From contig JAKZAN010000002.1 of assembly GCA_023053545.1 (NCBI GenBank), forward strand, positions 4,262,375 to 4,326,374: a stretch of 64,000 nt of DNA, read 5' to 3'. Below the pieces are notes generated by a model. That model saw only the letters and a program-made list of their open reading frames with translations. It ran no database searches and was not told the DNA's origin. Source of the stretch: Lepidurus packardi (lineage: Eukaryota; Arthropoda; Branchiopoda; Notostraca; Triopsidae). The position numbers were made by a program, and so were the translations under genes. Position 1 is the first letter of the stretch, and the number at the start of each line of letters is the position of its first letter. Shown in pieces: positions 44,427 to 63,842 of this stretch.

Positions 44427-45139
44427 ATGTCCAAAACGACTAAAAGGAAATATGTTAGCAAAGAAGTCACTGATAACTTCATACTTCCTACCTCAGATCA
44501 CAGCATTGTTAAGGTAAACTATTGATTTGCTAAATAATTTTCGTTTTAAGAATTCCTATTTTCGCATTTTTATTTTCTGTATATTTCCCAAATTATACGA
44601 ATGAATTGAATAGATTCTATAGTATAGTCTGTGTATTTTTTATCGTAGGTATTGGGTGGCAGAGGCAACAATTTGCACGAAGTTCAAGCTCCTAATGGAG
44701 AAACGTACCTGGTTTCAATGCCAACCAAATTTCGAAGAAACATTTGGATTAAACGTGGCGATTTCGTCATGGTCCATCCCATTGAAGAGGGCGAAAAGGT
44801 GAAAGCAGAGATTCTCGCTATCCTTTACAAGGAACAAATTAGATACATTCAACAGGAAGGGAAATGGTAAGGAATTTGACAATCTTTTGCCATCTCAGTC
44901 GCAATAATTAAAGCTCCTGTCTGAGCAGGCCGGAAGCGTTCAATCTAGCGAAGTTAGAAGAACCTTTACCAGCTCAGGGCGCTGAAAACTCATATTCTAC
45001 ATCCGAAGGCTCTGAATCAGACGACGAAGACGATTTAACTCCTAATCCCAACAGAGCTTTCCAAACTTACCGACAGGACACTTCCAGTAGCTCATCAGAC
45101 GCATCTTCAGCAGAAGAAGATGAAAGCAAAGGCCAATGA
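44427..45139 (+). CDS. Eif1ad: EIF1AD, S1-like (eIF1A-type) RNA-binding protein
   Basis: EIF1AD (haponin) is a small nuclear protein with an eIF1A-like OB fold, implicated in stress response and late ribosome biogenesis. Three exons: 44427-44514 ([20 protein letters not shown]), 44649-44868 and about 44930-45139. The OB-fold exon has [20 protein letters not shown] and [20 protein letters not shown]. The last exon is an acidic, Ser-rich tail with ESDDEDDL and a run of Ser, ending DESKGQ. The length of about 170 residues fits the family. The second and third exons recur, damaged, at 57071-57520. Confidence 0.92.
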
Positions 45140-45245
45140 TAAGAACGATTGTGTGAACGACTCCTTTGGCCACCCTTGCATACTGACTTATGACCTGGAT
45201 AAATTAGACCACTGCTGACTGAACGTGGGAATGTCCTTTTGACGC

Positions 45246-45793
45246 CTAGTCGCTTGATTGGAAAAGTGGTAACTGGTCTGGGTGGACTCGTAATGGAGTG
45301 CGGTGTGGTTTTCGCAACTTATAAAAAGGGGTTTTACTTTTGGTAAATTTTGGAAGAAAAAAACGCCCGACTTGTGTTCTTCTGTGGCTGCCATGGATTT
45401 CAACCAACTCGGTAAACATCGTTGAAAGTTTGGATCGCCTTACTTCTTCTGGAACTGGCTTCAGGTGGAACTCCTTGGTTTCTTGCATGTTCGACCTGTT
45501 GCAGAAGGAAAGCTCTAGAATCCTGCATGGTGCATCTAGTTTCCATTGGCAGTTTTGTGCTAAAACGTTCCTGAAGGCAGAGGGGAGCGTTACTTACGCT
45601 AACCAAACCTTGGATGCATACAGTACGTGAATTCAATCGTGTTTTCCAAACGTTTCTCACTGCTCAGCATTTCCGTGATGTTTGTTACGATCAGAAACAA
45701 GGTGGAGTTCTGTATCTCTGCTTGAAGCACATATTGTGAGCCATTGATGATTGCCTCTTTAATGTTATAGTAGTACGAAAAAGTTGTAGACAT
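45246..45793 (-). pseudogene. TRAPPC13-like relic, unit A
   Basis: Minus-strand reading frames contain YYNIKEAIINGSQYVLQAEI followed by QNST. In a second frame there is QDSRAFLLQ, then in a third ETKEFHLKPVPEE. These fall in the same order as the middle of TRAPPC13, a subunit of the TRAPP vesicle-tethering complex. An intron of 56 nt (45571-45626) could join the outer two frames into a protein of about 164 residues ending LPLFQSSD. That model skips the QDSRAF match, and the N-terminal half of TRAPPC13 is absent. I therefore call it a degenerate fragment. The same layout is preserved in unit B (57725-58272), so the decay, or the unusual gene, predates the duplication. The family match is from memory and weak. 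Confidence 0.4.
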
Positions 45794-46469
45794 TATTCGC
45801 TTCGAATCTGGGTTGGACAACAGTCAACAACTCACGCCCCTTGCCATCTCGAACTTACAACTGCAATGCTGCGCTGCCATACTGTTGGATTCATTGATGG
45901 ATGTTTCAGAAAAGATCAGACCAAACGGTCGGATCGGATCGAAATTTTCAGGAAATTTACCGATCCAAAGTCAGGCCATCTAGTGGTCATGGTTGAACTT
46001 TTTCTACTCCGTTTCTAACAGCGAGGGGATTTGGCAAACGAGGTTTCGGGTAACAAACGCGTTTTTCGTTTTCAATTCACGTTTGTTAAGCATAATAGTA
46101 CTTAACTTTATGATTACTATTGTTTATAATGATCTGATATTTAATCGGATCTACGACGCTGATCGAAAATTACCTAAGATCCGACAAAAAGCCAAGATCC
46201 GGTGCACTGCTTAACTTACATCTGTAATTAGCTTTTGCTTAAAATATCAGAACGCATATCATTGAAATTATAGAAACGAAAGCCCGAGTATTTCAAGTAC
46301 TATGCAACTCGAACCCACGAGGATGTCAGAGAGTACCGATTTCATTTACACTGAAAATGATCGCATACTTGATGACCTCAAGATAACGTATATGCCTATT
46401 ACTTTCTGTAAATACCGTAAGTAACGCATTAATTCCTGTGCTGCGTCTCGAAGAACATTGTAACACTAA

Positions 46470-47535
46470 AAAATGTTCTTCGGTTTGACATATTTATCGT
46501 GCGTGAGTATTTTTCTGACAGGGGAAAGTGTTCTCTGTGCGCCATGTGACGCCGAGAATCTAATTCCCTTGCAATTGTACATCCCGCGAGGAGAAGTAAA
46601 GCATATAATCCAATAAACGATAGCTTCGATTCTGAGCAACGTCAATGGAAATGGAAACTTCTAGAATCTACTCCCAAATGTTAGCACTGCTCCAGGAGTA
46701 AAAACGGAAAGTCTGGTGAACTAATTAACCCGACTGGTCTTAAAACTCGGCCAGTCTTGGACTTTACGCGTAATTGAAATGTATATCTATATGCAGCTCT
46801 ACAGGCAGTACTTTGTGTCAACTGTATATAAGTCAATTTATGCATGGAGTAAGTTGTGCAGATATCATAGTTAATCAAAACGCTACGAAGTCGGGCCTCT
46901 ACTTGGTTCATCCGACTAATTTGGTTGAGGGACCGCGGAAAGTGTTTTGCGATATGGGAACTGAAGGCGGTGGTTGGACAGTTTTCAGACAAGATACAAT
47001 GTCGAACTTCTCGAAAATTTCACTAGTACTTTCAAAGAATATGAGGTATTTGCCATCAGTGTTAAAGTTTTCGGAAACTTTTAAAATTTGGTGTTTGAAA
47101 ACTAGCTGGGTTTTGGGGATATTGATCGCTAATTCTGGATGGGAATGGATTGCTTTAGGCTCTCACATACGATGATAGTGGAGGATCGGTATTCAGGATT
47201 GCTCTCATTTCCAGCTTTTATAAGCTGTCATCGTAGGGTGGTTGGTGGTACTATAGTTGCCATACCTCAAACCTTAATGGCAAGTATTTACGAGGCCCTC
47301 ATGACAGTTATGCGGATGGGATCAATTGGTAAAAATGTTCACATTAGAAGTTTGAATTCAATTAAGTTATGTTAGGCTCGACTTTAAAGGGTATTACTAT
47401 TCATTAAAGAAAACCGTTATGCGATTCAGGCCTCAAAATTTTGATGCTGTGGCCGTCGACAATCCACCAGAGTTTCAGACCAAGAAGAGCGTTGCTGACT
47501 TGATTAAGGACGGTGTTACGTTAACGAAACCTTAA
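46470..47535 (+). pseudogene. Fibrinogen-related (FReD) pseudogene, unit A
   Basis: Fibrinogen-domain lectins of arthropods are secreted recognition proteins. Here the first exon, which in unit B encodes a signal-peptide-like start, has an in-frame stop shortly after IPRGEVKHIIQ. The next exon has the domain start GLYLVHPTNLVEGPRKVFCD and GGGWTVF. After an intron, LGFGDIDR is followed by a stop (TAA) where unit B has Glu. The exon coding for the middle of the domain is deleted (about 0.2 kb around 47190). The last two exons are intact: [20 protein letters not shown] and, after an intron, LDFKGYYYSLKKTVMRFRPQ, ending at the stop near 47535. Several lesions, so non-functional. Confidence 0.8.
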
Positions 47536-47665
47536 CGATATTGCAACGTTATCGCAAGTTCGTAGTGGCATATTTAGTTTATTAAAATTATCGCTCAACG
47601 CAATTTTTGTTTCGCTGGGAATTCGTGATCATATTTACGTAGTTGCGTAACAAAATAATACAGGG

Positions 47666-49636
47666 TTAAGGAGGGGTGGGCATGCTACCAAGAATTTGAA
47701 ACGCAGCCTTTTCTAAACTTTCGCGGTGGTCAGGATGCGCAATTCGAGTTAATTCGTACGAACGACGAAGGAGAGGAAGTCCAAACAGATTGCAAATGCC
47801 ATATTCCGTTACAACCCAATGTACGTGAGCTCTTGTGGTAACCACACCAGCCCCTATACGATGTCATTTACAGGAATGAATAGCAAAAGTCGACCAATAA
47901 ATAATAACTAATTAACTCACCTTGTTTTAGGAAAGGTACAATTCGCGACTCGCCTTTACCAGTTGTAGAGTGTAGAGCCACAACTGCTTTTCCGTTCTGA
48001 CTTAGGGAAGCACCTCGAATAAAGTCGACTTGTCCGCCAACTCCGGAATAAATGTATGTTCCAATGGAATCCGAAACAGCCTGGCCAGTAATATCCATTT
48101 CTATGCAAGAGTTGACGCCAACGACATTGGGATTCTTAGCAATGATATTAACATCGTTAACCCAGTCAGCATCTCCGAAATCTAATTTCACATGAAAAAG
48201 TAAGTGAAATTCCTAACAAAGGTTGCATTCCTGCATTTCGTACAGATATTTGGGTTGTCATTCACGTAGTCGTATAGTTGCTGCGATCCGAGGCAAAACG
48301 TGGTTACTGTTTTGCCACGCATTACTTTTTTATGCGCGTTGGTAATGCATCCAGATTCGATTAAATCCATAGCCCCATCGCTGATCATCTCTGTATGAAT
48401 GCCCATATCTTTGCGGTCCTTTAGAAGACTCGTTACAGCGTCCGGAATATTCCCAATACCTTCAAATGAAAAAAAAAACATTCGTTGCATATTCAGAATG
48501 ACTTGCAAATGATATTAACCGAATTGTAAGGTAGCGCCATCTTGTACTAAATTATCAGCGACCAATTTTCCAATTTTCCAGTCGTTTTCATCTGGCTCAA
48601 ATTTGGGCAAACAGACCAACTCGTAGTCATCTTCAACGATGCAATCAAAGTGTGACATGTGGATTAAGCCGCTGCCGAATGTCCTCGGCATCTGAGGGTT
48701 AACCAATCCTATATCATTGTAGCAATATAATTATGCTTTAGCTTGGTAAATCATTTCATTACAGATTACCTATGAGATATTTGGCGCTCTTGACTACAGA
48801 CATGTTGGCATCTACGGAAATCCCCAAGGTACAGAATCCGTGTTTATCAGGGGGAGATACCTTTTATAAATTAAGCACCGTACTACATATGGTAGGAAAG
48901 ATAAACCAATTAGATTGTACCTGGACCATAGCCACATCGATGTTGACATAGGACGTAAAATACTTCGGAACATCGGACAACATAATAGGCAAGTAGTCGC
49001 CTTTACCTTCTTTGATGGCTTGCCTTCCGAATGGTCCGATAAAAGTAGAACCAAGCCGAAAATGAGCTTAAACAAGAAAGATAAATTCTATCCTCAAATA
49101 TACCACTAGGAAATTTAATTGGTACCTTCAAAGTCGGAGTCTAAAAATGGCATTGGTTCTACCTGTAGCCCTTGAAAGACGTAGACGTCTTTCAAGTTAG
49201 CTTGCTTGCCATATTCTGTCAATGCGTAAAGTAAAGGGCGAGGTACAGCTGCAGCCGTTTGAAAGCAAACCACGTTTTCTAAATGGTTAAATGTTAGCAA
49301 GACATGTTGAGAACATAGTAATACCTTTTGGATAGTACTTGACTGTACGACTTTAACAGCTTCTTCCGCACTTACGACAGGTGGTTTGCGCGGTAAAACA
49401 TGAGTCGGTTCCCTCGAGTACGTATAATAAAACCGCTGTCCAGCTGCGGAGCTTTGACATGGGGTCAAACGCTTTAAAGTTTGGAGCAAATTTCCTGAAA
49501 GTTTCCGGGTACCCATAGTGGATATTCGTTGGTCAACGGAATATTGCAAACTGAGACGGAATAAGTTTGAACGGGTCCTATTCAAGTATTTAGCGAATAC
49601 AGGATGCACTGGCCTTGTTAGAAAACCCCTTATCAT
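47666..49636 (-). CDS. Acetyl-CoA hydrolase/CoA-transferase family protein (4-hydroxybutyrate CoA-transferase-like), copy A
   Basis: Members of this family move CoA between carboxylic acids, for example from acetyl-CoA or succinyl-CoA; animal forms are mostly mitochondrial. The N-terminus MIRGFLTRPVHP, Arg-rich and without acids, looks like a mitochondrial presequence. An internal Met (49516, MGTRKLSGNLLQTLKRL) is an alternative start. In order: PPVVSAEEAVKVVQ; HFRLGSTFIGPFGRQAIKEG; VSPPDKHGFCTLGISVD; VNPQMPRTFGSGLIHMSHFD; GIGNIPDAV; GVNSCIEMDITGQ, with the likely catalytic Glu; and GAGVVTTRAHVHWVVTEYG, ending ILGSMPTPP. About eight exons, with GT/AG borders at all those I followed. No break was found. 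The substrate cannot be told from sequence. Confidence 0.88.
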
Positions 49637-50008
49637 TAAGGAAAAGGAAAGGTTAAAGTGCAAAATGCAGAATTGGAATTGTATATGCAAGTTCAAAAGT
49701 CTAATGTACAAATGAAGCCAGTGAAGAGAAATGGGATATATAAGATAGGAAATTACTGTAGAACGGGAATTACGTGTATGGAGAAATGTTATCAAGCCTG
49801 ATAACAGTATAGTAAAACACCTTGGATCTCTGAAGTTTCCTGAATCTCCCAATCTATCTTTACAAAACTTAAATCCATATCGGAGTCCATTCATACAGTA
49901 AAGTCGAAGTAAGGGAGCATATTTCCTTGTAATGGAACAGTAATTCAAATATTGATTCCTTGACGGTGACTAATTTCTCGTTAACAGGAACGAATATGCC
50001 AAAAAAAA

Positions 50009-50135: not shown

Positions 50136-50544
50136 TCATTTCAGTTCCTTCAACGATTAATGAAAATATGATTAATGAATGAATTAATGAATATGATCGA
50201 TTAATGAAAATATGACCGTTTGGCTATTGCCATACCTTGTATTCCCTCGATGTTTCCAATGTCATATTTTATTTGTTCTCGTTATTTTGAAATATATTAA
50301 AAACTCCTTGTATTTTGCTTTACATTACTTGTATGAAAAGCTCACACATACAATACACTTTTCAGATGACAACCTACGGTCGCTATGGACCACAATGCCA
50401 GTCACGCCAAGTACAACACTTACTCTTTTGAAGCCAGTTTTTTAATAATGACGAAAGATTTGTTAGAATTTGATTTGCATAAAACCTATCCGTAACGTCT
50501 CCATCTGATTCAGGGCAAACACACTCCTTGATGCGGCATTATGT

Positions 50545-50874
50545 TGTTGTTCCATAAACCAATACGTCATCCAGGTAGACCAGACACTGATGCCATTTTA
50601 AGCCAACTAAGACTCTGTCCATGAGTCGCTGGAAGGTGGCAGGCGCGTTGCTTAAACCGAATGGCATCCTCTTGAATTCATAAGAGACCATCTGGAGTCA
50701 CGAAAGCTGTCTTTTCTTGATATTCAGGATCCACTGCTACTTGCCAGTAACCGCTAGCCAAGTCTAGGGAAGTGAAGTATTTTGCGTTTCCAATCCGATC
50801 CAAAACGTCATCAATCCTCGGCAGGGGGTATACGTCTCTTTTTGTGGCCGCATTAAGACGTCGGTAATCCACGC
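50545..50874 (-). repeat. Inverted RT arm, left
   Basis: Reverse complement of 53769-54097, with one extra T (in GGTCTCTTATG versus GGTCTCTATG). The left end stops within RT just past the YLDD catalytic motif, at GGAACAACA, with unrelated DNA beyond. Confidence 0.9.
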
Positions 50875-52318
50875 AGAATCGCAGCTCTCCATTCTTCTTC
50901 CGTACCAGCACGACTGGAGACGACCAAGGACTTTCTGATGAGGTAATTATTCCCTTTTCCAACATGTCGGATACTTGTCCGGCTATTACTTCTCTTTCTC
51001 CCGGCGACAATCTTCGAGGGAGGCAGGAAAGGGGCGGGGCGTCAGAAGTCTCGATCCGGTGTCTGACAATATCCGTATGGCCCAAGCTGCCCTCAGATTC
51101 TTGAAAGCAATGTTGGTACTTCTGAACAAGTTGTCGTACGGCTTCGGATTCTCTGGGCGGGAGTTCAGGGTTGATATCCAGTTGCAACGGTGACTTGGAG
51201 GCGGCATTTCCTTCGGATACGCTTAGGATTACATCGGGTGATCCATTCGTCTCCTTAACTTCGGCTACTGGCATCCCTGGCTTCGTTACTCTGCATAGGC
51301 GTTGACCGCTTCGGAATCGAATTGGCGACGAACTTAAATTGACCACTGGAATATCTATGAAGCCTTCCTGCACGGCGAGTATGCTCTCGGGAATCACCCA
51401 CTCTCTTCTAGATCGAGCGTGACGGTCTAACGGAACGACCACCGTCTCCGGAGAACCTCGAGGGGCGTGAACTCGAACGAAAACCATGGTAGAGGCGGGT
51501 AGGGACGTGGTACCGCAGATAGTACAGATGCCTAAGCTCTCCGTGACTGGGTCGAAGCCGGGAGGGGACCAACACGATTCTTCGGGGTTGGGTTCCACAG
51601 AAATATCTGGAAGTACTGTGGGGATTGTAGGCAGCTCTTCCTGTTGACTGACTGGTCCTACTGGTTCGGCGACCGCCACAATACTTTGGTCCTCGATTTG
51701 TTTCAAAACCCACGATTCTTCGGTGTTCAGTTCCACAGAAATATCTGGAAGAACTGTGGGGATTGTAGGTAGTTCTTCCTGTTGGCTGACTGGTCCTACT
51801 GGTTCGGCGACCGTCCCAGTACCTCCGAATGCCGTGGAATTATTTGTTAAATCCGTCGATAGCTCGACACTTTGGTCCTCGATTTGTTCCAAAACCCACG
51901 ATTCTGTCTTCGGTATGTGAAGCCGTTGACTCACGCGCGGGACGGCAATAGTGCTTCTACCCAGTACCATGGCGCCAACGTCATTCCGCCCCATCCAGTC
52001 TACGCCGAGTATAACGGGGAATGGGCAGTGCCGGACCACGATAAATCGGTTGACCGTGTCTACTCCTCCGGCCTTCCACACAACTCGGAGTTCAAGTGTT
52101 CCCATAACCGGCAAATCTTCCTTGGCCGCTCCACAAATATTCGGACCTAAATATGGTTCGATTTGGTCACGAATTCCGGTTATCATGTCTTCTCGTACTA
52201 ACGATCGTGCGCCACCCGAATCCACTACTGCTGGTACTCCGTCGATACATCCGCCCAAATGGATGAAGATGAACGGCAAAGTGGTTGGTCGACTACCCAG
52301 AGAAGTTGTCGAAACCAC
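50678..52318 (-). pseudogene. Retroelement protease and partial reverse transcriptase (pol, 5' part)
   Basis: The open frame carries a retroviral-type aspartic protease with VVDSGGARSLV and, about 70 residues on, VILGVDWMG. A linker follows with an internal duplication, then the RT fingers and palm start: IITSSESPWSSPVVLVRKKN and LDLASGYWQVAVDPEYQ. A one-base insertion ends the frame right after VTPDGLL, before the catalytic YLDD. The rest of RT continues out of frame to 50545 and is then cut off. It follows gag in another frame, as is usual for gag-pol frameshifting. Confidence 0.88.
51585..51910 (-). repeat. Tandem duplication in the pol linker
   Basis: Two copies of a block encoding ESWVL-QIEDQS followed by VAEPVGPVSQQEELPTIPTV and LPDISVE. 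The copies differ by a small internal deletion in one (loss of the ELSTDLTNNSTAFGGTG stretch). The duplication keeps the frame, so the linker between protease and RT tolerates length change. Confidence 0.8.
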
Positions 52319-52344
52319 TGGGACGAAAGGGGCTTCTGCGGAAG

Positions 52345-53382
52345 TTAGGGCCGACCCTGCCCTCCCGGGGCGGCCCGTGGGTTTTCCGACCGATTACGGT
52401 AAGCGGCATCTTGACCCGGACGATTTCCGCTACCATGGTTAAAACCGTCGGAGTTGGGGCAATTACGGCTAAAGTGTCCTCCCCCACATTTGTAGCACGT
52501 GGAGGCCCTTCGATTTGGACAGTCTCTGGCCAAATGTCCGACTCTGCCGCACTCGAAGCATCCTCTCCTTTCGTTCGGATCTGGCGGAAAATCAGGTCGG
52601 GGCGGGGTCCTGGGGTGGTCTGAAGGCATGGCTGAATGACCGACTCTGGCTAACAAGGTGCGGATCCCCGCGATCAACTCTCCATCGTGACCAATGCCGC
52701 TGGGTGTGCCCGGTACGTTAACGGGCTCTTGTGTGGGGATGCCAGTAATTTCCTCTAGTCGCTGGGCTGCATCGATGAAATCACTGATGCTTTTCGCCGG
52801 GGAGACCATCAGTGCGGCAGCGTGTTCAGGACGGGCGAGTCCGCGGATCAGGTAGGGGATTATGGCCTCCTCGTTGATGCCTTGGGGGCACCTCTTGCAA
52901 AGGGCGGCCTTCCTGAGGATATAATGTACCACCGGTTCTCCCGCCTCCTGTCGTCGTGACTTCACTAAAGGCAACCACTCTTCCATCGTCATTTTCTTTT
53001 CGAACACCTTCTCCAGCTTGGACCGCCAGTCCGTCCACCGAGTGTGGGTCTGTCCGTCTGTTTCATGCCACGATAGGGCCAATCCTTGGATTTTGCTAAT
53101 GGCAATCCTACGCTTAAGCGTGTCGTCCCATCCTTCCGTTTCTGAAGCCAACTTGAAATTTCGCAGCCAGGCGTGTACATCCCCTTCGCCATCGTAGGTT
53201 GGTATGGTAGACGCTGTTTTAGAGATAGGCTTCGTATTACGGGAATGTTGGGCTGCCAAGCTTTTGATCAGTTGATCGTGGTCCGACCGTTGGGTTGCCA
53301 CGCTTTGGGTTAGTGCCGACTGTTGGGCTACCAAGCTTTGGGTTAGTGCCGACAGCGTTTTGATTAGCTCTTCGGTGGCCAT
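52345..53382 (-). CDS. Retroelement Gag with two zinc knuckles
   Basis: Gag packages the element RNA. From MATEELIKTLSALTQSLVAQ there is a short repeat-rich coil, then a capsid-like domain (DVHAWLRNFKLASETEGWDD; EEWLPLVKSRRQEAGEPVV). Two CCHC zinc knuckles follow: CFECGRVGHLARDC and CYKCGGGHFSRNC. The frame is intact. An earlier Met at 53499 would add residues coded by leader repeats, so the start at 53382 is preferred. Confidence 0.85.
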   Translation of the reverse strand: MATEELIKTLSALTQSLVAQQSALTQSVATQRSDHDQLIKSLAAQHSRNTKPISKTASTIPTYDGEGDVHAWLRNFKLASETEGWDDTLKRRIAISKIQGLALSWHETDGQTHTRWTDWRSKLEKVFEKKMTMEEWLPLVKSRRQEAGEPVVHYILRKAALCKRCPQGINEEAIIPYLIRGLARPEHAAALMVSPAKSISDFIDAAQRLEEITGIPTQEPVNVPGTPSGIGHDGELIAGIRTLLARVGHSAMPSDHPRTPPRPDFPPDPNERRGCFECGRVGHLARDCPNRRASTCYKCGGGHFSRNCPNSDGFNHGSGNRPGQDAAYRNRSENPRAAPGGQGRP

Positions 53383-53439
53383 TCTGACTTGCCCGGGGAT
53401 AACTCTGCGATATCCGCTTGAGTACCCGGTGACGCCACT

Positions 53440-53590
53440 ATGAAATTCGTCAACACTGAAAGTAACCGGCGATATGCACTTGGGTCCGCAGTGACACAAC
53501 TATGAAATTCGCCAACACTGAAATTCTTCAACAGTGAAACTCGCAACACTGAAACACTGCAACTATGAAATCCTGCAACACTGAAACTTG
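53440..53590 (-). repeat. Short repeats in the retroelement leader
   Basis: At least six irregular copies of CAACACTGAAA / CAACTATGAAA (plus-strand reading) at about 15-30 bp spacing, between the PBS and gag. They vary by one or two bases. The function is unknown; the leader position fits packaging or translation signals, but this is inference. Confidence 0.65.
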
Positions 53591-53744
53591 ACGTTTCATG
53601 CGCAAATTACGTGTCTTTTTTCACAAAATACTGTTTTTTTTTTTCACAAAATCAGGTTCTTTCCAACGTGGAATCCAATCACAAACACTCTCCGTCACTG
53701 GAAATCGTATGACACTTTGATTAATACCACAGGATTGCTGCAGA

Positions 53745-53762
53745 ATCCCACTCCTGACACCA
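53745..53762 (-). other. Primer binding site of the retroelement
   Basis: On the minus strand TGGTGTCAGGAGTGGGAT starts with TGG, as expected for pairing to a tRNA 3' CCA end. It sits 2 nt from an ACA that matches the last bases of the LTR at 56918-56920. This fixes the 5' end of the minus-strand half. The priming tRNA is not assigned. Confidence 0.75.
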
Positions 53763-53768
53763 AATGTC

Positions 53769-54097
53769 GCGTGGATTACCGACGTCTTAATGCGGCCACA
53801 AAAAGAGACGTATACCCCCTGCCGAGGATTGATGACGTTTTGGATCGGATTGGAAACGCAAAATACTTCACTTCCCTAGACTTGGCTAGCGGTTACTGGC
53901 AAGTAGCAGTGGATCCTGAATATCAAGAAAAGACAGCTTTCGTGACTCCAGATGGTCTCTATGAATTCAAGAGGATGCCATTCGGTTTAAGCAACGCGCC
54001 TGCCACCTTCCAGCGACTCATGGACAGAGTCTTAGTTGGCTTAAAATGGCATCAGTGTCTGGTCTACCTGGATGACGTATTGGTTTATGGAACAACA
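53769..54097 (+). repeat. Inverted RT arm, right
   Basis: Partner of 50545-50874. It begins at GCGTGGATTACCG immediately after the LTR-derived TGTC. The two arms with the 2.9-kb interior form a large inverted repeat. Confidence 0.9.
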
Positions 54098-55462
54098 TTT
54101 GAAGAACACCAGAGTCGATTGCAGACTGTACTAGAGGCGATTTCCCGGGCTGGACTTACCTTGAAAACCCAGAAGTGTGCGTTCGCCTACGAGGAGATTA
54201 AGTTCCTGGGCCATGTCCTCAATCACCAAGGAATCCGGCCTGACCCAGATAAAGTTCGTGCCGTCACGGAATTTCCAGTACCCCAGAATGTTCGTCAAGT
54301 ACGAAGCTTCCTCGGCCTCAGCAGCTATTACCGAAGATTCGTTCCCCGCTTCGCAGCCGTCTCGAAACCACTCACGGAACTTCTACGAAAGCGCCAAGTA
54401 TGGAAGTGGGACATTAAGCAACAGGCTGCTTTTGACGGACTTCGCCAGTTACTAACAACCCCACCCGTGCTCGCTTCCCTTCGGACTGGATGGGATTTAG
54501 AGGTCCATACAGATGCGTCGGGAGATGGATTGGGAGCTGTCTTGATTCAGCGGAACGGGGAGTGCGAAGAAACGATTGCCTACCTAAGCCGGAGATTGAC
54601 CCCCAGTGAAGAAAACCACCACAGTAACGAGTTGGAGTGCTTGGCGGTTGTTTGGGCAGTTGAAAAGCTCCGGTCGTATGTTTTTGGCCGTCCATTCCGG
54701 GTTATTACCGATAATTCGTCCGTCACTTGGCTCTACTCAAAGCAAGTCCTTCCAACCAAGTTCAGCCGCTGGATAATGGCCCTACAAGAGTACGAGATTA
54801 CGTTTAAACACCGCAGTGGTAGGGCAAATGTCATCGCTGACGCCCTATCCCGTGCTCCGGTAGGAACAGCCGAAGACACGACAGTCCCAGCGGAGCTTAC
54901 AGTTTGCTCCATCAGCACAAAATTTCCAAGGACCACCCTGGTTTTGATGCAACGGGCCGATGCTAAACTAGCACCCATACTTCAGAAGCTGGACGAATTC
55001 GGAGGCGGTGACGGTATTGGTAACTGCGAAGCCAACGTTTGTATTCGAGACTCGAGTACTGCATCTAAGCGGGAACAAAAACGCTTACATGAGGAATTTG
55101 TCATTCGGCATGGAGTTCTGTACAGGCGTGGAGGCCCTAATGGAAGACCGTCACTCATTGCTATCCCGGCGCCAATGAAGCGGACTATCTTAGAAGAGTG
55201 TCACTCGGGCTCTACGGGCGGACATCTGGGAGTAACCAAAACGATTGCCAGGGTACGACAACGGTATTGGTGGCCGAAACTTCGTCGCCACGTTGGACAG
55301 TTCATCGCCGGATGCCCGCATTGTCAAGTGTACAAACAACCACCGGGGCTACAAGCCGGGCTACTGCAGTCCATTCCCCCCCCCCTTCCCGACCTTTCGA
55401 AGTCTTGGGTATCGATCACGTGGGTCCTCTCCCCCGTACAGAAGGAGGCAATCGCCATGTGA
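53769..55462 (+). pseudogene. Retroelement reverse transcriptase, RNase H and start of integrase (pol, 3' part)
   Basis: The frame opens upstream at 53588, but element pol sequence starts at the joint at 53769. RT carries the catalytic [12 protein letters not shown] and FLGLSSYYRRFVPRFA. RNase H has the acidic residues in VHTDASGDGLG, NELECLAVVW and VITDNSSVTW. The integrase zinc domain has H-H-C-C in GGHLGVTKTI, RRHVGQF and CPHCQ. The frame is lost at a run of ten C at 55376-55385, after which integrase continues one frame over. The RT N-terminus and everything before it are missing in this orientation. Confidence 0.88.
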
Positions 55463-56541
55463 TCGTTTGTATCGATTATGGTACGAAATGGATTGAAGCT
55501 CAAGCCGTCCCAGATACGACATCCCAAAGAGTCTGCAACTTTCTGATGCAAAACATCGTTCTTCGGCATGGTACACCAAACAAGCTTATCAGCGATCGTG
55601 GCACTGGTTTCACGGCTGAGTTGCTTGAGGAAGTCTTGGAAAAGATGCAAATCCAGCATGCGATGTCGGCCGCCTACCACCCGCAGACCAATGGTTTATG
55701 TGAACGGGTAAATCGGACATTGGTGGAAGTATTATCCGGTCTAGTGACTCCAAGTCAATCCAGCTGGGATGTGTATGTTACGCAGGCCTGTTTTGCAATC
55801 AACACCGCTGTGCAGGAGAGTACTGGGTTTACGCCGTTCCAGCTCGTGTATGGGAGACATGCAGTTCTGCCCGAAGAAACCAAATATCCCTGGCCAGAAG
55901 ATGCGCCGGAAACATACAGCGAATTTCTTGATCGGGTCGAGTCTACGCGTCTGTGGGCCATCGAGAGTGTCAAGTCCAAGCAGAAAAAGCAGAAAACAAA
56001 TTTTGATGCCCACCGGAAGCTGTCGGTTCCCTATCACGAAGGAGATTTAGTTTTGGTTCGTCGACGACTACGAGTGGTGGGGAAATGTCAGAAGATGCTC
56101 CCCAAGTATATAGGACCGTTTCAGGTGGCCGCCAAGCTTACGGAGGTGACCTATCGTGTTATGGATCTCCCAGGCCTAGAGACAAGAAAGGCATTACGAA
56201 TTTTTCCGGTCCACGTATCCCAAATGAAGTCGTATCACGAAGGTTATCAGTCGGACGAAAGTGATCGGTCGTTTGAATCGGACGTCGATGGGGGAAATAA
56301 CACGGGGGATTTACAGCCAGGTCCAGCGCAGGAGGAAGCCACGGACGTCCAACAGGTAGCCGGCGGTGGTATAGAACTCGAAGTGCCAGACAACACAAGA
56401 GAGGATTCTGGTGGGATGACGCCGGAAGAAGGGTTGAAAAGTACTGGACGTAACGACATCGGAACAGCGAAGAAGGAGATTGCGTTGAGCCTTCCTGCAC
56501 GAGTAAGGAAGCCTCCTAAGCGCTACGTCGAAGAATGTTGA
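55386..56541 (+). pseudogene. Retroelement integrase, catalytic core and C-terminal domain
   Basis: This continues the integrase after the C-run frameshift. The DDE catalytic triad is visible as Asp in GIDHVGPLPRT and VCIDYGTKW, Asp in SDRGTGFT, and Glu before the NHxxG-like region around HPQTNGLCERVNRT. A C-terminal SH3-like part (GDLVLVRRRL; YIGPFQVAAKLTEVTYRV) precedes an acidic tail. The stop at 56541 is followed by about 215 bp of non-coding element before the LTR. Confidence 0.87.
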
Positions 56542-56755
56542 ACCGGTTGATGCTAAATTGTATTACGAGTAACCTTGGCACGTGCTTTTGTTTGTGGGAA
56601 GTTGGTAAAATGGTAGTTTAACGAGGTCTAGCCTTTGTAGTAGTTTTTCCTTTGTAATGTGGTGTTTTTCTTTGTTGGGTATTTTCACTGTCCCGATTGC
56701 TTTGAGTGTATGTCTTTTTGGAAATTTTAAGAGGTTTGTTAAAATTTATGTGGTC

Positions 56756-56768
56756 AGGAAAGGCCGAG
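56756..56768 (+). other. Polypurine tract
   Basis: AGGAAAGGCCGAG directly precedes the LTR start TGTAGCGG. This is the place where plus-strand priming occurs in LTR elements. Two C interrupt the purines. Confidence 0.55.
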
Positions 56769-56920
56769 TGTAGCGGTTCGCGAGTCGAACCGCTAGCGAA
56801 CCTCCGAGCAAGTAGAGAGAGAGTTGCGAGGGAGAGTGGTAGAGCCTAGAGCGGGCTCGGGAGAAGACAGACGCGAGGGGTGGAGGCGTGGTGCGTACCA
56901 GAATTGAACTCCACGCGACA
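56769..56920 (+). repeat. 3' LTR, 152 bp
   Basis: It starts TGTAGCGG and ends CGCGACA, giving the canonical TGT...ACA. The right end is fixed by the same CCACGCGACA found (reverse complemented) next to the primer binding site at 53765-53774. The first 27 bp form a palindrome, TAGCGGTTCG and CGAACCGCTA around a 5-bp loop. This is a short LTR. The 5' LTR is missing, so no target-site duplication can be checked. Confidence 0.75.
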
Positions 56921-56999
56921 ATACGAACTATAGAGCAAAACAAAATGACGTTAAACTCACATGCCAAAGTCAGGCTGTTTTTGTAGGCGGGGTTTTTGT

Positions 57000-57520
57000 A
57001 GCCTTGAATTTTTCGCCGAGCTGCATCTCTTTCCGTTGTAAGGCAAACGTCTCGTTTGACGTGAAAATTTGCTCCTAATGAAGAAACGTACCTCGTTTCA
57101 ATGCCTAACAAATTTCGAAGAAAAATTTGGATTAACCGTGGCGATTTTGTCATGGTTCATCCCATTGAAGAGGGCGGAAAGGTGAAAGCAGAGATTCTCG
57201 CTATCCTTTACAAGGAACAAATTAGATACATTCAACAAGAATGGAAATGGTAAGGAATTTGACAATCTTTTGCCATCTCAGTCGCACTAATTAAAACTCC
57301 TGTCTGAGCAGGCCGGAAGCGTTCAATTTAGCGAAGTTAGAAGAACCTTTACCAGCTCAGGGCGCTCAAAACTCATATTCTACATCCGAAGACTCTGAAT
57401 CAGACGACGAATACGATTTAACTCCTAATCCCAATAGAGCTTTCCAACTTACCGACAGGACACTTCCAGTAGCTTCCAGACGCATCTTCAGCAGAAGAAG
57501 TTGAAAACAAAGGCCAATGA
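57000..57520 (+). pseudogene. CFAP157-EIF1AD chimeric pseudogene
   Basis: 57000-57059 matches the CFAP157 exon at 43021-43080 (antisense here). 57071 onward matches EIF1AD from within exon 2 (44688). The first OB-fold strand, the EIF1AD start and the promoter are gone. The remaining frame reads [20 protein letters not shown]. The third exon has lost one A at the AFQ codons, which shifts the acidic tail out of frame. This is a dead copy. Confidence 0.88.
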
Positions 57521-57724
57521 TAAAAACGATTGTGTGTGCAAAAAGGACTAGCTATATATTGGTAAATATAAAAAATTGATTTACATGTCAAATAGCGGAC
57601 TTATTTTCGGGTCAATCACTTTCACTAGAAGAAAATTGGACTCCTTTGGCCGGCCTTGCACTCTGACTTTGACCTGGATGGATTAGATCACTGCTGACAG
57701 AACGTGGGAATGTCCTTTTGACGC

Positions 57725-58272
57725 CTAGTCGCTTGATTGGAAAAGTGGTAACTGGTCTGGGTGGACTCGTAATGGAGTGCGCTGAGGTTTTCGCAACCTA
57801 TAAAAACGGGTTTTACTTTTGATATATTTTGGAAGAAAAAAACGCCCGACTTGTGCTCTTCTGTGGCTGCCATGGATTTCAACCAACTCGGTAAACATCG
57901 TTGAAAGTTTGGATCGCCTTACTTCTTCTGGGACTGGCTTCAGATGGAACTCCTTTGTTTCTTGAATGTTCGACCTGTTGCAGAAAGTAAGCTCTAGAAT
58001 CCTGCATGGTGCATCTAGTTTCCATTGGCAGTTTTGTGCTAAAACGTTCCTGAAGGCAGAGGGGAGCGTTACTTACGTTAACCAAACCTTGGATGCATAC
58101 AGTACGTGAATTCAATCGTGTTTTCCAAACGTTTCTCACTGCTCAGCATTTCCGTGATGTTTGTTACGATCAGAAACAAGGTGGAATTCTGTATCTCTGC
58201 TTGAAGCACATATTGTGAGCCATTGATGATTGCCTCTTTAATGTTATAGTAGTACGAAAAAGTTGTAGACAT
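57725..58272 (-). pseudogene. TRAPPC13-like relic, unit B
   Basis: Same layout as 45246-45793: YYNIKEAIINGSQYVLQAEI in one frame, QDSRAYFLQ in a second, and ETKEFHLKPVPEE in a third, with the same possible 56-nt intron. A few amino-acid changes distinguish it (for example Met to Ile before QETKEF). No new stop was seen in the 164-residue model, so a real short gene is not excluded. The family call is weak. Confidence 0.4.
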
Positions 58273-58950
58273 TATTCGCTTCGAATCTGGGTTGGACAAC
58301 AGTCAACAACTCACGCCCCTTGCCATCTCGAACTTACAACTACAATGCTGCGTTGCCATACTGTAGCATTCATTGATGGATGTTTCAAAAAAGATCAGAC
58401 CAAACTGTCGGATCGGATCGAAATTTTTAGGAAATTTACCGATCCAACATCAGGCCATCTAGTGGTCATGGTTGAACTTTTTCTACTCCGTTTCTAACAG
58501 CGAAGGTCTTTGGCAAACGTGGTTTCGAGTAACAAACGCGTTTTTCGTTTTCAATTCACCTTTGTTCAGCATAGTAGTACTTAACTTTATTATTACTATT
58601 GTTTATAGTGATCTGATATTTAATCGGATCTACGACGCTGATCGAAAATTACCTAAGATCCGACAAAAAGCCAAGATCCGGTGCACTGCTTAACTTACAT
58701 CTGTAATTAGCTTTTGCTTAAAATATCAGAACGCATATCATTGAAATTATAGAAACGAAAGCCCGAGTATTTCAAGTCCTATGCAACTCGAACCCACGAG
58801 GATGTCAGAGAGTACCGATTTCATTTACACTGAAAATGATCGCATACTTGATGACCTCAAGATAACGTATATGCCTATTACTTTCTGTAAATACCGTAAG
58901 TAACGCATTAATTCCCGTGCTGCGTCTCGAAGGACTTGTAACAGTAAAAC

Positions 58951-60245
58951 ATGCGCTTTGATTTGCAATATTTATTGTACGTGAGTATTTTTCTGAGAGG
59001 GGAAAATGTTCTCTGTGCGCCATGTGACGCCGAGAATCTAATTCCCTTGCAATTGTACATCCCGCGAGGAGAATTAAAGCAAATAATCCAAGAAGCGATA
59101 ACTTCGATTCTGAGCAGCCTCAATGGAAATGGAAACTTTCAGAATCTACTCCCAAATTTAGCGCTGCTCCAGGAGTAAAAACGGAAAGTTCAGGAGTAAA
59201 AACGGAAATGTCAACTAATTAACCCGACTGGTGTTAAAACTCGCCAGTCTTGGACTTTACGCGTAATTGGTATGTATATCTATGTACAGCTCTACAAGCA
59301 GTACTTTCTGTCAACTGTATATAGGTCAATTTAAGCTTTGAGTAAATTGTGCAGATATCATAGTTAATCAAACGCTACGAAGTCGTTCCTCTACTTGGTT
59401 CGTCCGACTAATTTGGTTGAGGGACCGTGGAAAGTGTTTTGCGACATGGAAACTGAAGGCGGTGGTCGGATTGTTTTCCAGACAAAGGGCAATGTCGAAC
59501 CTCTCGAAAATTTCACTCGTACTTTCAAAGAATATGAGTATTTGCCATCAGTGTTAAAGTTTTTGGAAATTTTAAAAATTTGGTGTTTGAAAACTAGCTG
59601 GGTTTTGGGGATTTTGATCGCGAATTCTGGATGGGAAATGTATTGCTTTGGGCGCTCACTAACGATGATAATGGAGGATCGGTACCAGCATATGGAGCTA
59701 GTTGTCGACATGGAAACCTTCGATGGAGATACGCGGTTTGCTCGCTACACGAACTTTTCAATTGATTCCAATAAAGATGGCTATAGTCTGCACCTCCACT
59801 CGTATTCTGGTAATGCTGGGAACAGTTTGTCAAAGCATAGATTGCAAGTTTTTGTGACCGTAGATAGAGAACGTAACAATTGCGCCAAGACATTTAAAGT
59901 ACATCTATAATTGCTCTCATTTCCAGCTTTCATAATCTGTCATCGTAGGGTGGTTGGTGGTACTATAGTTGCATACTTCAAACCTTAATGGCAAGTATTT
60001 ACGAGGCCCTCATGACAGTTATGCGGAAGGGATCAATTGGTAAAAATGTTCACATTAGAAGTTTGAATTCAATTGAGTTATGCTAGGCTCGACTTTAAAG
60101 GGTATCACTATTCATTAAAGAAAACCGTTATGCGATTCAGGCCTCAAAATTTTGATTCTGTGGCCGTCGACAATCCACCAGAGTTTCAGACCAAGAAGAG
60201 CGTTGCTGACTTGATTAAGGACGGTGTTACGTTAACGAAACCTTA
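58951..60245 (+). pseudogene. Fibrinogen-related (FReD) pseudogene, unit B
   Basis: It keeps the first exon, which encodes a signal-peptide-like MRFDLQYLLYVSIFLRGENV followed by LCAPCD. The domain start LVEGPWKVFCDMETEGGG leads to ENFTRTFKEYE, where loss of one G damages the splice donor. After the intron comes LGFGDFDREFWMGN with ALTNDDNGG, then a one-base shift into MELVVDMETFDGDTRFARYT and LHSYSGNAGNSLSKH. A 50-nt intron (starting GTACATC) follows, then GGWWYYSC, where one C is lost compared with unit A. The last exon ends as in A. Several frame lesions mean no full product. Confidence 0.8.
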
Positions 60246-60376
60246 ACGATATTGCAACGTAATCGCAAGTTCGTAGTGGCATATTTAGTTTATTAAAATT
60301 ATCGCTCAACGCAATTTTTGTTTCGCTGGGAATTTGTGATCATATTTACGTAGTTGTGTTACAAAATAATACAGGG

Positions 60377-62347
60377 TTAAGGAGGGGTGGGCATGCTACC
60401 AAGAATTTGAAACGCAGCCTTTTCTAAACTTTCGCGGTGGTCAGGATGCGCAATTCGAATTAGTTCGTACGCACGATGAAGAAGAGGAAGTCCAAACAGA
60501 TTGCAAATGCCATATTCCGTTACAACCCAATGTACGTGAGCTCTTGTGGTAACCACACCAGCCCCTATACGATGTCATTTACAGGAATGAATAGCAAAAG
60601 TCGACCAATAAATGGTAACTAATTAACTCACCTTGTTTTAGGAAAGGTACAATTCGCGACTCGCCTTTACTAGTTGTAGAGTGTAGAACCACAACTGCTT
60701 TTCCATTCTGACTTAGGGAAGCACCTCGAATAAAGTCGACTTGTCCGCCAACTCCGGAATAAATGTATGTTCCAATGGAATCCGAAACTGTCTGACCAGT
60801 AATATCCATTTCTATGCAAGAGTTGACGCCAACGACATTGGGATTCTTAGCAATGATATTAACATCGTTAACCCAGTCAGCATCTCCGAAATCTAATTTC
60901 ACGTAAAAATGTAAGTGAAATTCTTAACAAAGGTTGCATTCCTGCATTTCGTACAGATATTTGGGTTGTCATTCACGTAGTCGTATAGTTGCTGCGATCC
61001 GAGGCAAAACGTGGTTACTGTTTTGCCACGCATTACTTTTTTATGCGCGTTGGTAATGCATCCAGATTCGATTAAATCCATAGCCCCATCGCTGATCATC
61101 TCTGTATGAATGCCCATATCTTTGCGGTCCTTTAGAAGACTCGTAATAGCGTCCGGAATATTCCCAATACCTTCAAATGAAAAAAAAACATTCGTTGCAT
61201 ATTCAGAATGACTTGCAAATGATATTAACCGAATTGTAAGGTAGCGCCATCTTGTACTAAATTATCAGCGATCAATTTTCCAATTTTCCGGTCGTTTTCA
61301 TCTGGCTCAAATTTGGGCAAACAGACCAACTCGTAGTCATCTTCAACGATGCAATCAAAGTGTGACGTGTGGATTAAGCCGCTGCCGAATGTCCTCGGCA
61401 TCTGAGGGTTAACCAATCCTATATCATTGTAGCAATATAATTATGCTTTAGCTTGGTAAATCATTTCATTACAGGTTACCTATGAGATATTTGGCGCTCT
61501 TGACTACAGACATGTTGGCATCTACGGAAATCCCCAAGGTACAGAATCCGTGTTTATCAGGGGGAGATACCTTTTATAAATTAAGCACCTTACTACATAT
61601 GGTAGCAAAGATACAACCATTAGATTGTACCTGGACCATAGCCACATCGATCTTGATATAGGACGTAAAATACTTCGGAACATCGGACAACATAATAGGC
61701 AAGTAGTCGCCTTTACCTTCTTTGATGGCTTGCCTTCCGAATGGTCCGATAAAAGTAGAACCAAGCCGAAAATGAGCTTAAACAAAGAAAGATAAATTCT
61801 ATCCTCAAATATAACACTAGGAAACTTAATTGGTACCTTCAAAGTCGGAGTCTAAAAATGGCATAGGTTCTATCTGTAGCCCTTGAAAGACGTAGACGTC
61901 TTTCAAGTTAGCTTGCTTGCCATATTCTGTCAATGCGTAAAGTAAAGGGCGAGGTACAGCTGCAGCCGTTTGAAAGTAAACAACGTTTTCTAAATGGTTA
62001 AATGTTAGCAAGACATGTTGAGAACATAGTAATACGTTTTGGATAATACTTGACTGTACGATTTTAACGGCTTCTTCCGCACTTACGACAGGTGGTTTGC
62101 GCGGTAAAACATGAGTCGGTTCCCTCGAGTACGTATAATAAAACCGCTGTCCAGCTGCGGAGCTTTGACATGGGGTCAAACGCTTTAAAGTTTGGAGCAA
62201 ATTTCCCGTAAGTTTCCGGGTACCCATAGTCGATATTCCTTGGTCAGCGGAATATTGCAAACTGAAACGGAATAAGTTTGAACGGGTCCTATTCAAGTAT
62301 TTAGGGTATCTAGGATGCACTGGCCTTGTTAGAAAACCCCTTATCAT
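60377..62347 (-). CDS. Acetyl-CoA hydrolase/CoA-transferase family protein, copy B
   Basis: A duplicate of the gene at 47666-49636 with the same exon layout and all the same motifs, including the catalytic GVNSCIEMDITGQ. Changes are mostly single substitutions. In the presequence, RYPKYLNRTRSNLFRFSLQY replaces VFAKYLNRTRSNLFRLSLQY. No stop or shift was found in the exons I followed. Further upstream, the copies differ by small indels. Both copies could therefore be active, unlike their neighbours in the duplicated block. Confidence 0.85.
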
Positions 62348-62721
62348 TAAGGAAACGGAAAGGTAAATAAGAAAGTTTAAAGTGCAAAATGCAAAATTGG
62401 AATTGGATATGCAAGGTCAAAAGTCTAATGTACAAATGAAGCCAGTGAAGAGAAATGGGATATATAAGATCGGAAATTACTGTAGAACGGGAATTACGGG
62501 TATGGAGAAATGTTATCAAGCCTGATAACAGTATAGTAAAACACCTTTGATCTCTGAAGTTTCCTGCCTCTCCCAATCTATCTTTACAAAACTTAAATCC
62601 ATATCGGAGTCCATTCATACAGTAAAGTCGAAGTAAGGAGCATAATTCTTTGTAATGGAACAGTAATTCAAATATTGATTCCTTGACGGTGACTCATTTC
62701 TCGTTAACAGGAACGAATATG

Positions 62722-63309
62722 TCAATTACGGACTAGGAGGATAAGGGTATAACAGGACGATTCTAGTCAGCTCAACAGCTAAACATGGACCAAGCCTAGA
62801 AAACATGCAAAAAGCATTTTTTGCAAGAGCTCCAATTGGCTTTGATTGTCAAATGTTTCGGAAAGCGAACGATGGCAATGGATATATGAACAAAATTTCG
62901 TTCTCATCCTCCAGCCAAGTATGTTCTATCTTACATTTATATATTTAATAAGACGTTTCACGGGTTTCATGCAAATCGGCCTTCAAACAAATCTGCTGTA
63001 TGCAAAATAAGTGCAAATGAGGTGTTTGGCTCCCCACCGGAGGTCCTTATTTCTTGTGTCCAAAACGTTCCCCGTAAAATCTAGTTTCCAAGCATGCTCG
63101 TTTGTGTACGGTTTTTAATTATTCTGAAATAAAAGCGAAAATTTGGAAAATTTTCCCGTGATTTCTCAAAAAATCCCCTAAAAGGGGTGTGGCCTATGAA
63201 AAAAGGACTAATCCTATTGGTGGATTTGATCAACAAGTGGGCGTGGCTCCTTTTCAAGGTGGATAATCGTTTTCAGGGCTTTTCTCCATAAGGAATAATG
63301 CTGTATCAA
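62722..63309. other. Unique region without recognised gene
   Basis: Sequence after the end of unit B. No conserved protein, RNA or transposon end was seen. It leads into the tandem-repeat array. Confidence 0.5.
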
Positions 63310-63842
63310 GCTAACCATAGACAACAGTGGCGGTCTTTGGCGGGCAATTCCTCTTGAAAACATCGTTGGAGGTTTTTATTAGGGCGGTGGCTAACCATAG
63401 ACAACAGTGGCGGTCTTTGGCGGGCAATTCCTTTTGAAAACATCGTTGGAGGTTTTCAATAGGGTGGTGGCTAACCATAGACAGCAGTGGCGGTCTTTGG
63501 CGGGCAATTCCTCTTGAAAACATCGTTGGAGGTTTTCATTAGGGCGGTGGCTAACCATAGACAACAGTGGCGGTCTTTGGCGGGCAATTCCTTTGGAAAA
63601 CATCGTTGGAGGTTTTCATTAGGGCGGTGGCTAACCATAGACAGCAGTGGCGGTCTTTGGCGGGCAATTCCTTTTGAAAACATCGTTGGAGGTTTTCAAT
63701 AGGGTGGTGGCTAACCTTAGACAGCAGTGGCGGTCTTTGGCGGACAATTCATGATGAAGATATCGTTGGGTGGTTTTCATTGTGATGGTGGCTAACCTAA
63801 GACAGCAGTGGCGGTCTTTGGCGGGCAATTCCTTTTGAAAAC
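63310..63842. repeat. 80-bp minisatellite, about 6.7 copies
   Basis: Units begin GCTAACCATAGACAACAGTG at 63310, 63390, 63470, 63550, 63630, 63710 and 63791. The first five spacings are exactly 80 bp and the last two are more diverged. Variants alternate: units 2 and 5 share CAATAGGGTGG, while units 1, 3 and 4 have ATTAGGGCGG. Minus-strand frames of 65-70 codons across the array repeat themselves and are not taken as genes. Confidence 0.95.

What the first reader, a model, noticed from the sequence alone, without database searches (positions are those of the whole stretch)
50545..56920. Retrotransposon rebuilt as two inverted halves joined at a 7-bp microhomology
Seen: the minus-strand half ends at its PBS plus 11 bp of LTR end (TGTCGCGTGGA). 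The plus-strand half starts inside RT. The LTR end and RT share GCGTGGA exactly at the joint (53769-53775). The result lacks a 5' LTR and has 330-bp inverted RT arms. Inference: a template switch during reverse transcription, or end-joining of a broken cDNA copy, made the structure. Classical autointegration is less likely because the joined LTR end is the inner one, not a cDNA terminus.
Basis: partly seen in the sequence, partly recalled or inferred. Interest (0 to 1): 0.75.

Follow-up and report, generated by a model that had tools for sequence, protein, structure and literature searches.

The report
Back-to-front retrotransposon inserted by one end
A Ty3-like jumping gene landed in this genome as two head-to-head halves, probably because its DNA copy was miswired while being made and only one end was then inserted by its own enzyme; it is an unusually clean example of a known kind of copying accident.

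Summary
50545-53775 is the PBS-to-RT half of a Ty3/gypsy-type element on the minus strand; 53769-56920 is the RT-to-3'LTR half on the plus strand, joined at GCGTGGA. The 330/329-bp RT arms differ by one inserted base. Of 10 matching places in the 108.6-Mb assembly, only the window spans the joint. A duplicated locus 21-27 kb downstream gives the empty site: both flanks are contiguous there over 109 bp with 4 mismatches and no gap. So the 6.4 kb came in as one insertion, without target duplication or loss. Six of nine other readable insertions have perfect 4-bp duplications (ATAC or ATAT). The window's 3' LTR ends at CA against ATAC, so integrase most likely joined that end; the other end is an RT-internal break with a 3-nt filler. 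Best model: a template switch during reverse transcription 11 nt into U5, then one-ended integration, then host repair of the other end. Host-polymerase priming after one-ended integration is the main rival. The kind is known from retroviruses and DNA-break repair; this is a new variant of modest interest.

The parts
50502..50541 (+). left host flank, ends ...GGCATTA
   Evidence: matches C2:4340346-4340385 at 97.5%
50542..50544 (+). 3-nt filler TGT at the left joint (or slippage of TGT/GTT, or 3 nt of LTR terminus)
   Evidence: present neither in the empty site nor in the element at this point
50545..50874 (-). left RT arm, 330 nt; its edge lies at an LTR-end-like word (sense ACAACA|TTTG)
   Evidence: inverted repeat of 53769-54097; motif count
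50545..53775 (-). PBS-gag-RT half; gag ORF 52345-53499 (384 aa, zinc knuckle), ORF 50678-52318 with the start of RT
53744..53762 (-). primer binding site, 19 nt, matches the 3' end of a tRNA-Leu(CAG) gene plus CCA
53765..53775 (-). last 11 bp of the LTR (U5 end), all that was found of a 5' LTR
53769..53775 (.). inner joint, microhomology GCGTGGA (7 bp with the window's own LTR type, 6 with the commoner sister type)
53769..54097 (+). right RT arm, 329 nt
53769..56541 (+). RT-RNase H-integrase half; ORFs 53588-55462 and 55198-56541 lie in different frames
56769..56920 (+). 3' LTR, 152 bp, TGTAGC...GCGACA
56921..56989 (+). right host flank, begins ATAC (family target motif RTAY)
   Evidence: contiguous with the left flank at C2:4340346-4340454

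Best explanation
This is one insertion of a miswired cDNA of a low-copy Ty3/gypsy-type element. Inferred step 1: during reverse transcription the minus strand had passed the PBS and copied 11 nt of U5. Its 3' end (...GCGTGGA) then left its template, paired with the complementary bases in the RT region of a minus-strand cDNA (its own, folded back, or a sister copy), and was extended in the opposite sense to the 3' LTR end. Step 2, well supported: integrase trimmed and joined the only complete LTR end to an ATAC target, its usual kind of site. Step 3, inferred: the other end, cut back to an RT-internal position, was joined by host repair to the free 3' end of the nicked target, with a 3-nt filler. 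That order gives no target duplication and no target loss, as seen.
For: Empty site: 109 aligned bp, 4 mismatches, no gap across the insertion point. Six of the nine other insertions with both ends readable have perfect 4-bp duplications, ATAC or ATAT; the window's right flank begins ATAC and its left flank ends ATTA. RTAY makes up 1.5% of window positions outside the element. The 3' LTR ends exactly at CA, without the TT that follows the LTR inside the element. The joint lies 13 nt from a PBS matching tRNA-Leu(CAG), where the minus-strand 3' end sits during the second strand transfer (established knowledge). Microhomology of 7 bp (3.9e-4 at random) or, with the other LTR type, 6 bp (1.4e-3). 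Among sites covered by at least 4 copies, both halves carry a similar private load (4 substitutions in the 3231-bp half, 5 in the 3152-bp half, plus one indel site each); at 8 sites, in both halves, the window sides with C1:4.90 and C1:8.19 against C1:13.36, 7.28 and 9.69. A sister copy, C2:12.36 Mb, has two internal deletions, one at a 10-bp microhomology. Precedents: one-ended HIV/ASLV integration whose aberrant end can carry viral DNA in either orientation (PMC5041404); yeast inverted inserts with longer inner (median 6 bp) than outer (median 2 bp) microhomology (PMC11724301).
Against: No reads were seen. The right half runs past 54097 to the 3' LTR while the left arm stops at 50545, so a simple self-fold-back needs a later loss of the minus-strand 5' part, or a second template. 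The microhomology would serve a host polymerase equally well. Two sites (A-90 and B-3149) go against the shared-allele pattern and others are mixed. The C2:12.36 deletions could postdate insertion. The pre-insertion ATAC is read from the window's own right flank; the paralog has AGAC there. Three of the nine other insertions lack a perfect 4-bp duplication, and the one at C1:13.36 Mb counts only if a 41-bp LTR head 3 kb away is taken as its 5' edge.
Confidence: 0.55

Rival explanations
1. Host-polymerase model: a normal cDNA was integrated by its 3' LTR end only; the free, truncated end (in RT) was used by a host repair polymerase as a primer on viral DNA at the LTR/PBS boundary through TCCACGC, copied PBS-gag-RT, then was joined to the target.
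For: This class of product is described for HIV/ASLV: a truncated aberrant end, short homology, appended viral DNA in either orientation (PMC5041404 passages and Discussion). The filler and short outer homology fit end joining, and templated insertions are common at fly alternative end-joining junctions (PMC2895639 passages).
Against: It does not predict that the copied tract begins 13 nt from the PBS or ends at an LTR-end-like word. In that paper large duplications or deletions of host DNA were the usual outcome; here target change is zero.
Confidence: 0.25
2. Two broken or partial cDNA pieces were end-joined and captured at a chromosome break without integrase.
For: Capture of two inverted pieces of one locus with inner microhomology of 2-11 bp is documented in yeast (PMC11724301 section 19).
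Against: The right edge is a perfect processed LTR CA end at the family's ATAC target, and no target bases are lost.
Confidence: 0.1
3. A normal insertion was rearranged later in the chromosome (inversion or deletion within the tandemly duplicated region).
For: The insert sits in a tandem duplication, 44688-50002 ~ 57071-62725, a place prone to rearrangement.
Against: It would have to remove the 5' LTR and one 4-bp duplication exactly, leaving the flanks flush with the empty site.
Confidence: 0.05
4. Assembly or amplification artefact (chimeric inverted read).
For: No reads were available; inverted chimeras with microhomology are known from whole-genome amplification (recalled).
Against: The arms are 2.9 kb apart, so this is not a missed adapter. 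The arms differ by one base. The insertion is flush with an empty site and its LTR end sits at the family target motif. It lies inside a 13.5-Mb contig.
Confidence: 0.05

Closest known systems
Aberrant one-ended HIV-1/ASLV proviruses (PMC5041404; passages and Discussion read)
   Same: One LTR end is joined normally by integrase; the other end is often truncated, can carry viral DNA in either orientation, and usually uses short homology.
   Different: Those were provoked by inhibitors, integrase mutants or a bad end, and most commonly come with host duplications, else deletions. This is a natural Ty3-type insertion with no host change.
Template-switched complex LTR retrotransposons in Triticeae (Sabot and Schulman 2007, PMC1950507; part 1 of 2 of the text read)
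   Different: Those are head-to-tail with three LTRs and flanking TSDs. This one is inverted, with one LTR and no TSD.
Inverted double insertions at yeast double-strand breaks (PMC11724301; passages and section 19 read)
   Same: Two inverted pieces of one locus, partly overlapping, with longer inner and shorter outer microhomology.
   Different: Those are far shorter (medians of 50 and 150 bp are given) and do not involve an integrase end.
LINE-1 5' inversions (twin priming recalled; 5'-inverted copies mentioned in an abstract start seen, PMC2912911)
   Same: An inverted 5' part in a retroelement insertion.
   Different: LINE-1 is target-primed; this is an LTR element with an integrase end.

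Membership tests
Ty3/gypsy LTR retrotransposon | RT-RNase H-integrase order with Ty3-like RT | tested here: met
   Pfam RVT_1, RT_RNaseH, Integrase_H2C2, rve in that order; best PDB match is Ty3 Gag-Pol. A protease domain had no Pfam hit at E 0.001.
Ty3/gypsy LTR retrotransposon | LTRs TG...CA, PBS to a host tRNA, short TSD | tested here: met
   For the family: LTR TGT...ACA, PBS matching tRNA-Leu(CAG), perfect 4-bp TSD in 6 of 9 other insertions with both ends readable.
Normal (concerted) integrase insertion | Both LTRs and a target-site duplication | tested here: not met
   No 5' LTR found; left ATTA versus right ATAC; flanks flush with the empty site.
One-ended (half-site) integrase insertion | One processed LTR end at a normal target, other end aberrant | tested here: met
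   3' LTR CA|ATAC; left edge inside RT with a 3-nt filler. That integrase did it is inferred from sequence.
Reverse-transcription template switch | Joint made in the particle before integration | not testable with these tools
   Consistent by position and microhomology only; needs cDNA or particle data.
Autointegration product | Joint made by an outer LTR terminus (CA) attacking an internal site | tested here: not met
   The joined end is inner, still attached to the PBS, and lies 11 nt inside U5 rather than at CA.

The most novel reading that the evidence does not exclude
Both edges of the left half were set by the first few nucleotides of minus-strand strong-stop DNA. The tRNA-primed strand (CCA-AATGT) jumped at once to an LTR-end mimic in RT (sense CAACA|TTTG; 7 shared bases, CAAATGT), which started a cDNA there. 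That cDNA later ran through the PBS into intact U5 RNA and jumped again through GCGTGGA. An element with mistakes at both strand transfers would show that nascent strong-stop DNA is a source of inverted insertions, with the pseudo-LTR terminus TGT left at the edge.
Probability: 0.12. Interest if true: 0.55.

Novelty: new variant of a known kind. Interest (0 to 1): 0.37.

Why it matters
It is a natural insertion in which the joint, the empty site and the family's normal target can all be read, so steps inferred from drug-treated or mutant retroviruses can be placed in order. A young inverted copy with a 330-bp nearly perfect stem could also make double-stranded RNA against its own family if it were transcribed from a flank; nothing here shows that it is.

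Tried and rejected
Considered and rejected: nested insertions (no LTR or TSD at the inner or left edge; flush empty site); autointegration (inner LTR end still attached to the PBS); a shifted or mutated TSD, e.g. ATTA with one base lost (needs a deletion plus a 3-bp indel in the paralog, against one substitution for no TSD); other copies with the same joint (none among the 10 places; the tool calls its repeat counts lower bounds). A search for a second empty-site paralog with either flank gave only C2:4340346-4340454 besides the window itself. The exact tRNA pattern gave nothing; two mismatches gave 14 places, and ARAGORN on 4 of those loci called tRNA-Leu(CAG) in 2. The gag homology search gave 4 hits: the best (E 7.9e-36, 32% identity) has no name, and the two with names are fungal hypothetical proteins; the host was not identified. 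Paper searches gave no closer case in the rows listed; the library is open-licence PMC only, so this does not show that none is in print. PMC8705849 held only a reference to aberrant integrations, and two passages of PMC12220202 on HIV provirus deletions were not used.
Full report
What is there. The window is C2:4262375-4326374 of a 108.6-Mb, 344-contig assembly without named source. At 50545-56920 lies a Ty3/gypsy-type element in two inverted halves. The minus-strand half reads, in element sense, 11 bp of LTR end, TT, PBS, gag (384-aa ORF with a zinc knuckle) and a further ORF into RT; the plus-strand half reads RT, RNase H, integrase and one 152-bp 3' LTR. The best PDB match of the RT part is Ty3 Gag-Pol. 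The PBS matches the end of a tRNA-Leu(CAG) called by ARAGORN in 2 of the 4 loci scanned, out of 14 places found.

The joint. Three other copies checked read TTCT-GCGTGGA-TTACC in RT. The window's own 3' LTR end reads, antisense, TGTC-GCGTGGA-GTTC; the joint reads TGTC-GCGTGGA-TTACC. That is 7 shared bases. Many sister LTRs carry CCCCACG in place of CTCCACG; with such a source the shared word would be 6 bases. Among all random inverted pairings within this element, shared arm left out, 7 or more occur at 3.9e-4 and 6 or more at 1.4e-3. Of 10 places that match the joint query, only the window covers the whole of it; one of the other 9 is the window's own left arm. The search tool warns that its counts of repeats are lower bounds.

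The empty site. The left flank 50502-50541 and the right flank 56921-56989 lie end to end at C2:4340346-4340454, a copy of a duplicated segment, in 109 columns with 4 substitutions and no gap (found). The paralog also carries about 390 bp not in the window, just left of this stretch and flanked by an 8-bp repeat, and its farther left flank is only 72% alike. The insertion therefore most likely entered as one piece. The base A at the border may belong to the flank or to the LTR. Three bases, TGT (50542-50544), belong to neither the flank nor the element at that point.

Which end did integrase join? Nine other insertions have both outer ends readable. Six have perfect 4-bp duplications: ATAC at C1:8.19, C1:4.90 and C5:11.33 Mb (the last present three times with the same 3' or 5' flank), ATAT at C1:13.36, C2:0.974 and C2:12.36 Mb. 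For C1:13.36 Mb the left edge is a 41-bp LTR head about 3 kb from the rest, taken here as the same LTR split by a later insertion. One has GTAT/GTAC (C1:9.69 Mb), one TGTAA in another register (C6:4.456 Mb), and one a disrupted 3' end (C1:7.28 Mb). The window's 3' LTR ends GCGACA directly before ATAC, and the TT that follows an LTR inside the element is gone. The left flank ends ATTA. So the 3' end looks integrase-joined at the family's own target, and the left end does not. When integrase joins one end only, the target keeps a free 3' end next to the 4-bp target (established knowledge of strand transfer). Sealing the other cDNA end to it gives just what is seen: no duplication, no loss.

How the inverted cDNA arose. 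The joint lies 11 nt into U5, 13 nt from the PBS, where the minus-strand 3' end stands during the second strand transfer (established knowledge). A switch from there to a minus-strand cDNA in RT would write RT to 3' LTR in the opposite sense and finish at a normal LTR end. That the switch was made by reverse transcriptase is inference. The right half runs beyond the end of the left arm, so either a longer minus strand was folded back and later trimmed, or a second cDNA was the template. Among sites covered by at least 4 copies, the halves carry similar private loads (4 substitutions in the 3231-bp half, 5 in the 3152-bp half, and one indel site each). At 8 sites (A-1052; B-752, 902, 1888, 2298, 2483, 3059, 3067) the window sides with C1:4.90 and C1:8.19 against C1:13.36, C1:7.28 and C1:9.69; at 2 (A-90, B-3149) it is the other way, and other variable sites are mixed. 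One parent RNA or two near-identical ones both fit.

The left edge. It falls at sense CAACA|TTTG in RT, which mimics the LTR/PBS border (GCGACA|TTTGG, or GCAACA in some copies). The 7-mer ACATTTG occurs in the two halves at only two internal sense sites besides the true border. This was noticed after the fact. It is the basis of the novel case and is otherwise unexplained.

Age. The arms differ by one inserted T and no substitution in 329 columns; the T is missing from the 8 other copies covering the site. Five sister copies have 0 to 2 substitutions between their LTRs over 145 bp. The insertion looks young, but no clock was applied because the host is not known.

Rearranged sister copies. C2:12.36 Mb lost two internal stretches, with 10-bp (GTACGACAAC) and 2-bp junction homology and a 44-bp piece kept between them, inside an intact 4-bp duplication. 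It is consistent with template switching in this family but could postdate insertion.

Known relatives. HIV/ASLV integrations with one good end show a normal junction at one side and an often truncated other end that can carry viral DNA in either orientation, explained there by host polymerases that prime on short homologies (PMC5041404; passages and whole Discussion read). Yeast break repair gives inverted double insertions with median inner homology of 6 bp and outer of 2 bp (PMC11724301; passages and section 19). Fly alternative end joining often gives templated insertions (PMC2895639; passages). Template-switched LTR elements in grasses are head-to-tail with TSDs (PMC1950507; first of two parts). 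The kind is known; the combination in a natural Ty3-type copy with a readable empty site is a new variant. Ten paper searches listed no closer case in the open library held.

Verdict. Most likely a real, single, one-ended insertion of an inverted cDNA. The one-ended step is well supported by sequence; the template switch is likely but not shown.

Noticed in passing
44688-50002 and 57071-62725: Tandem duplication, 93-97% identical in three aligned pieces, on either side of the insert; the ORF at 57101-57250 matches Pfam eIF-1a (E 1.6e-9), so an eIF1A-type gene is probably duplicated here.
   Followed up: partly
C2:4339954-4340345 (L051): About 390 bp in the paralog, absent from the window and flanked by an 8-bp repeat: perhaps a short transposon; it contains CCTAA repeats.
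   Followed up: no
63310-63842: Minisatellite with a period of about 80 bp.
   Followed up: no
C5:11.25, 11.33 and 11.355 Mb: What looks like the same insertion occurs three times with shared flanks, in both orientations: probably a recent segmental duplication carrying the element.
   Followed up: partly
C2:12.36 Mb (L042): Sister copy with two internal deletions (10-bp and 2-bp microhomology) and a 44-bp piece kept between them.
   Followed up: partly
LTR start, 56773-56793: The LTR head holds an inverted repeat, GCGGTTCG-CGAGT-CGAACCGC, that is deleted or altered in LTRs at C1:8.1915 and C1:13.36 Mb.
   Followed up: no
C29:4653 and C1:11177651: Same 5' flank and near-identical LTR on two contigs, but the match to the element runs about 1.1 kb further on C29: haplotype, nested insertion or assembly split.
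   Followed up: no
55376-55385: Poly-C run near the point where the pol reading frame changes between ORFs 53588-55462 and 55198-56541; it could be a true frameshift or a sequencing error.
   Followed up: no
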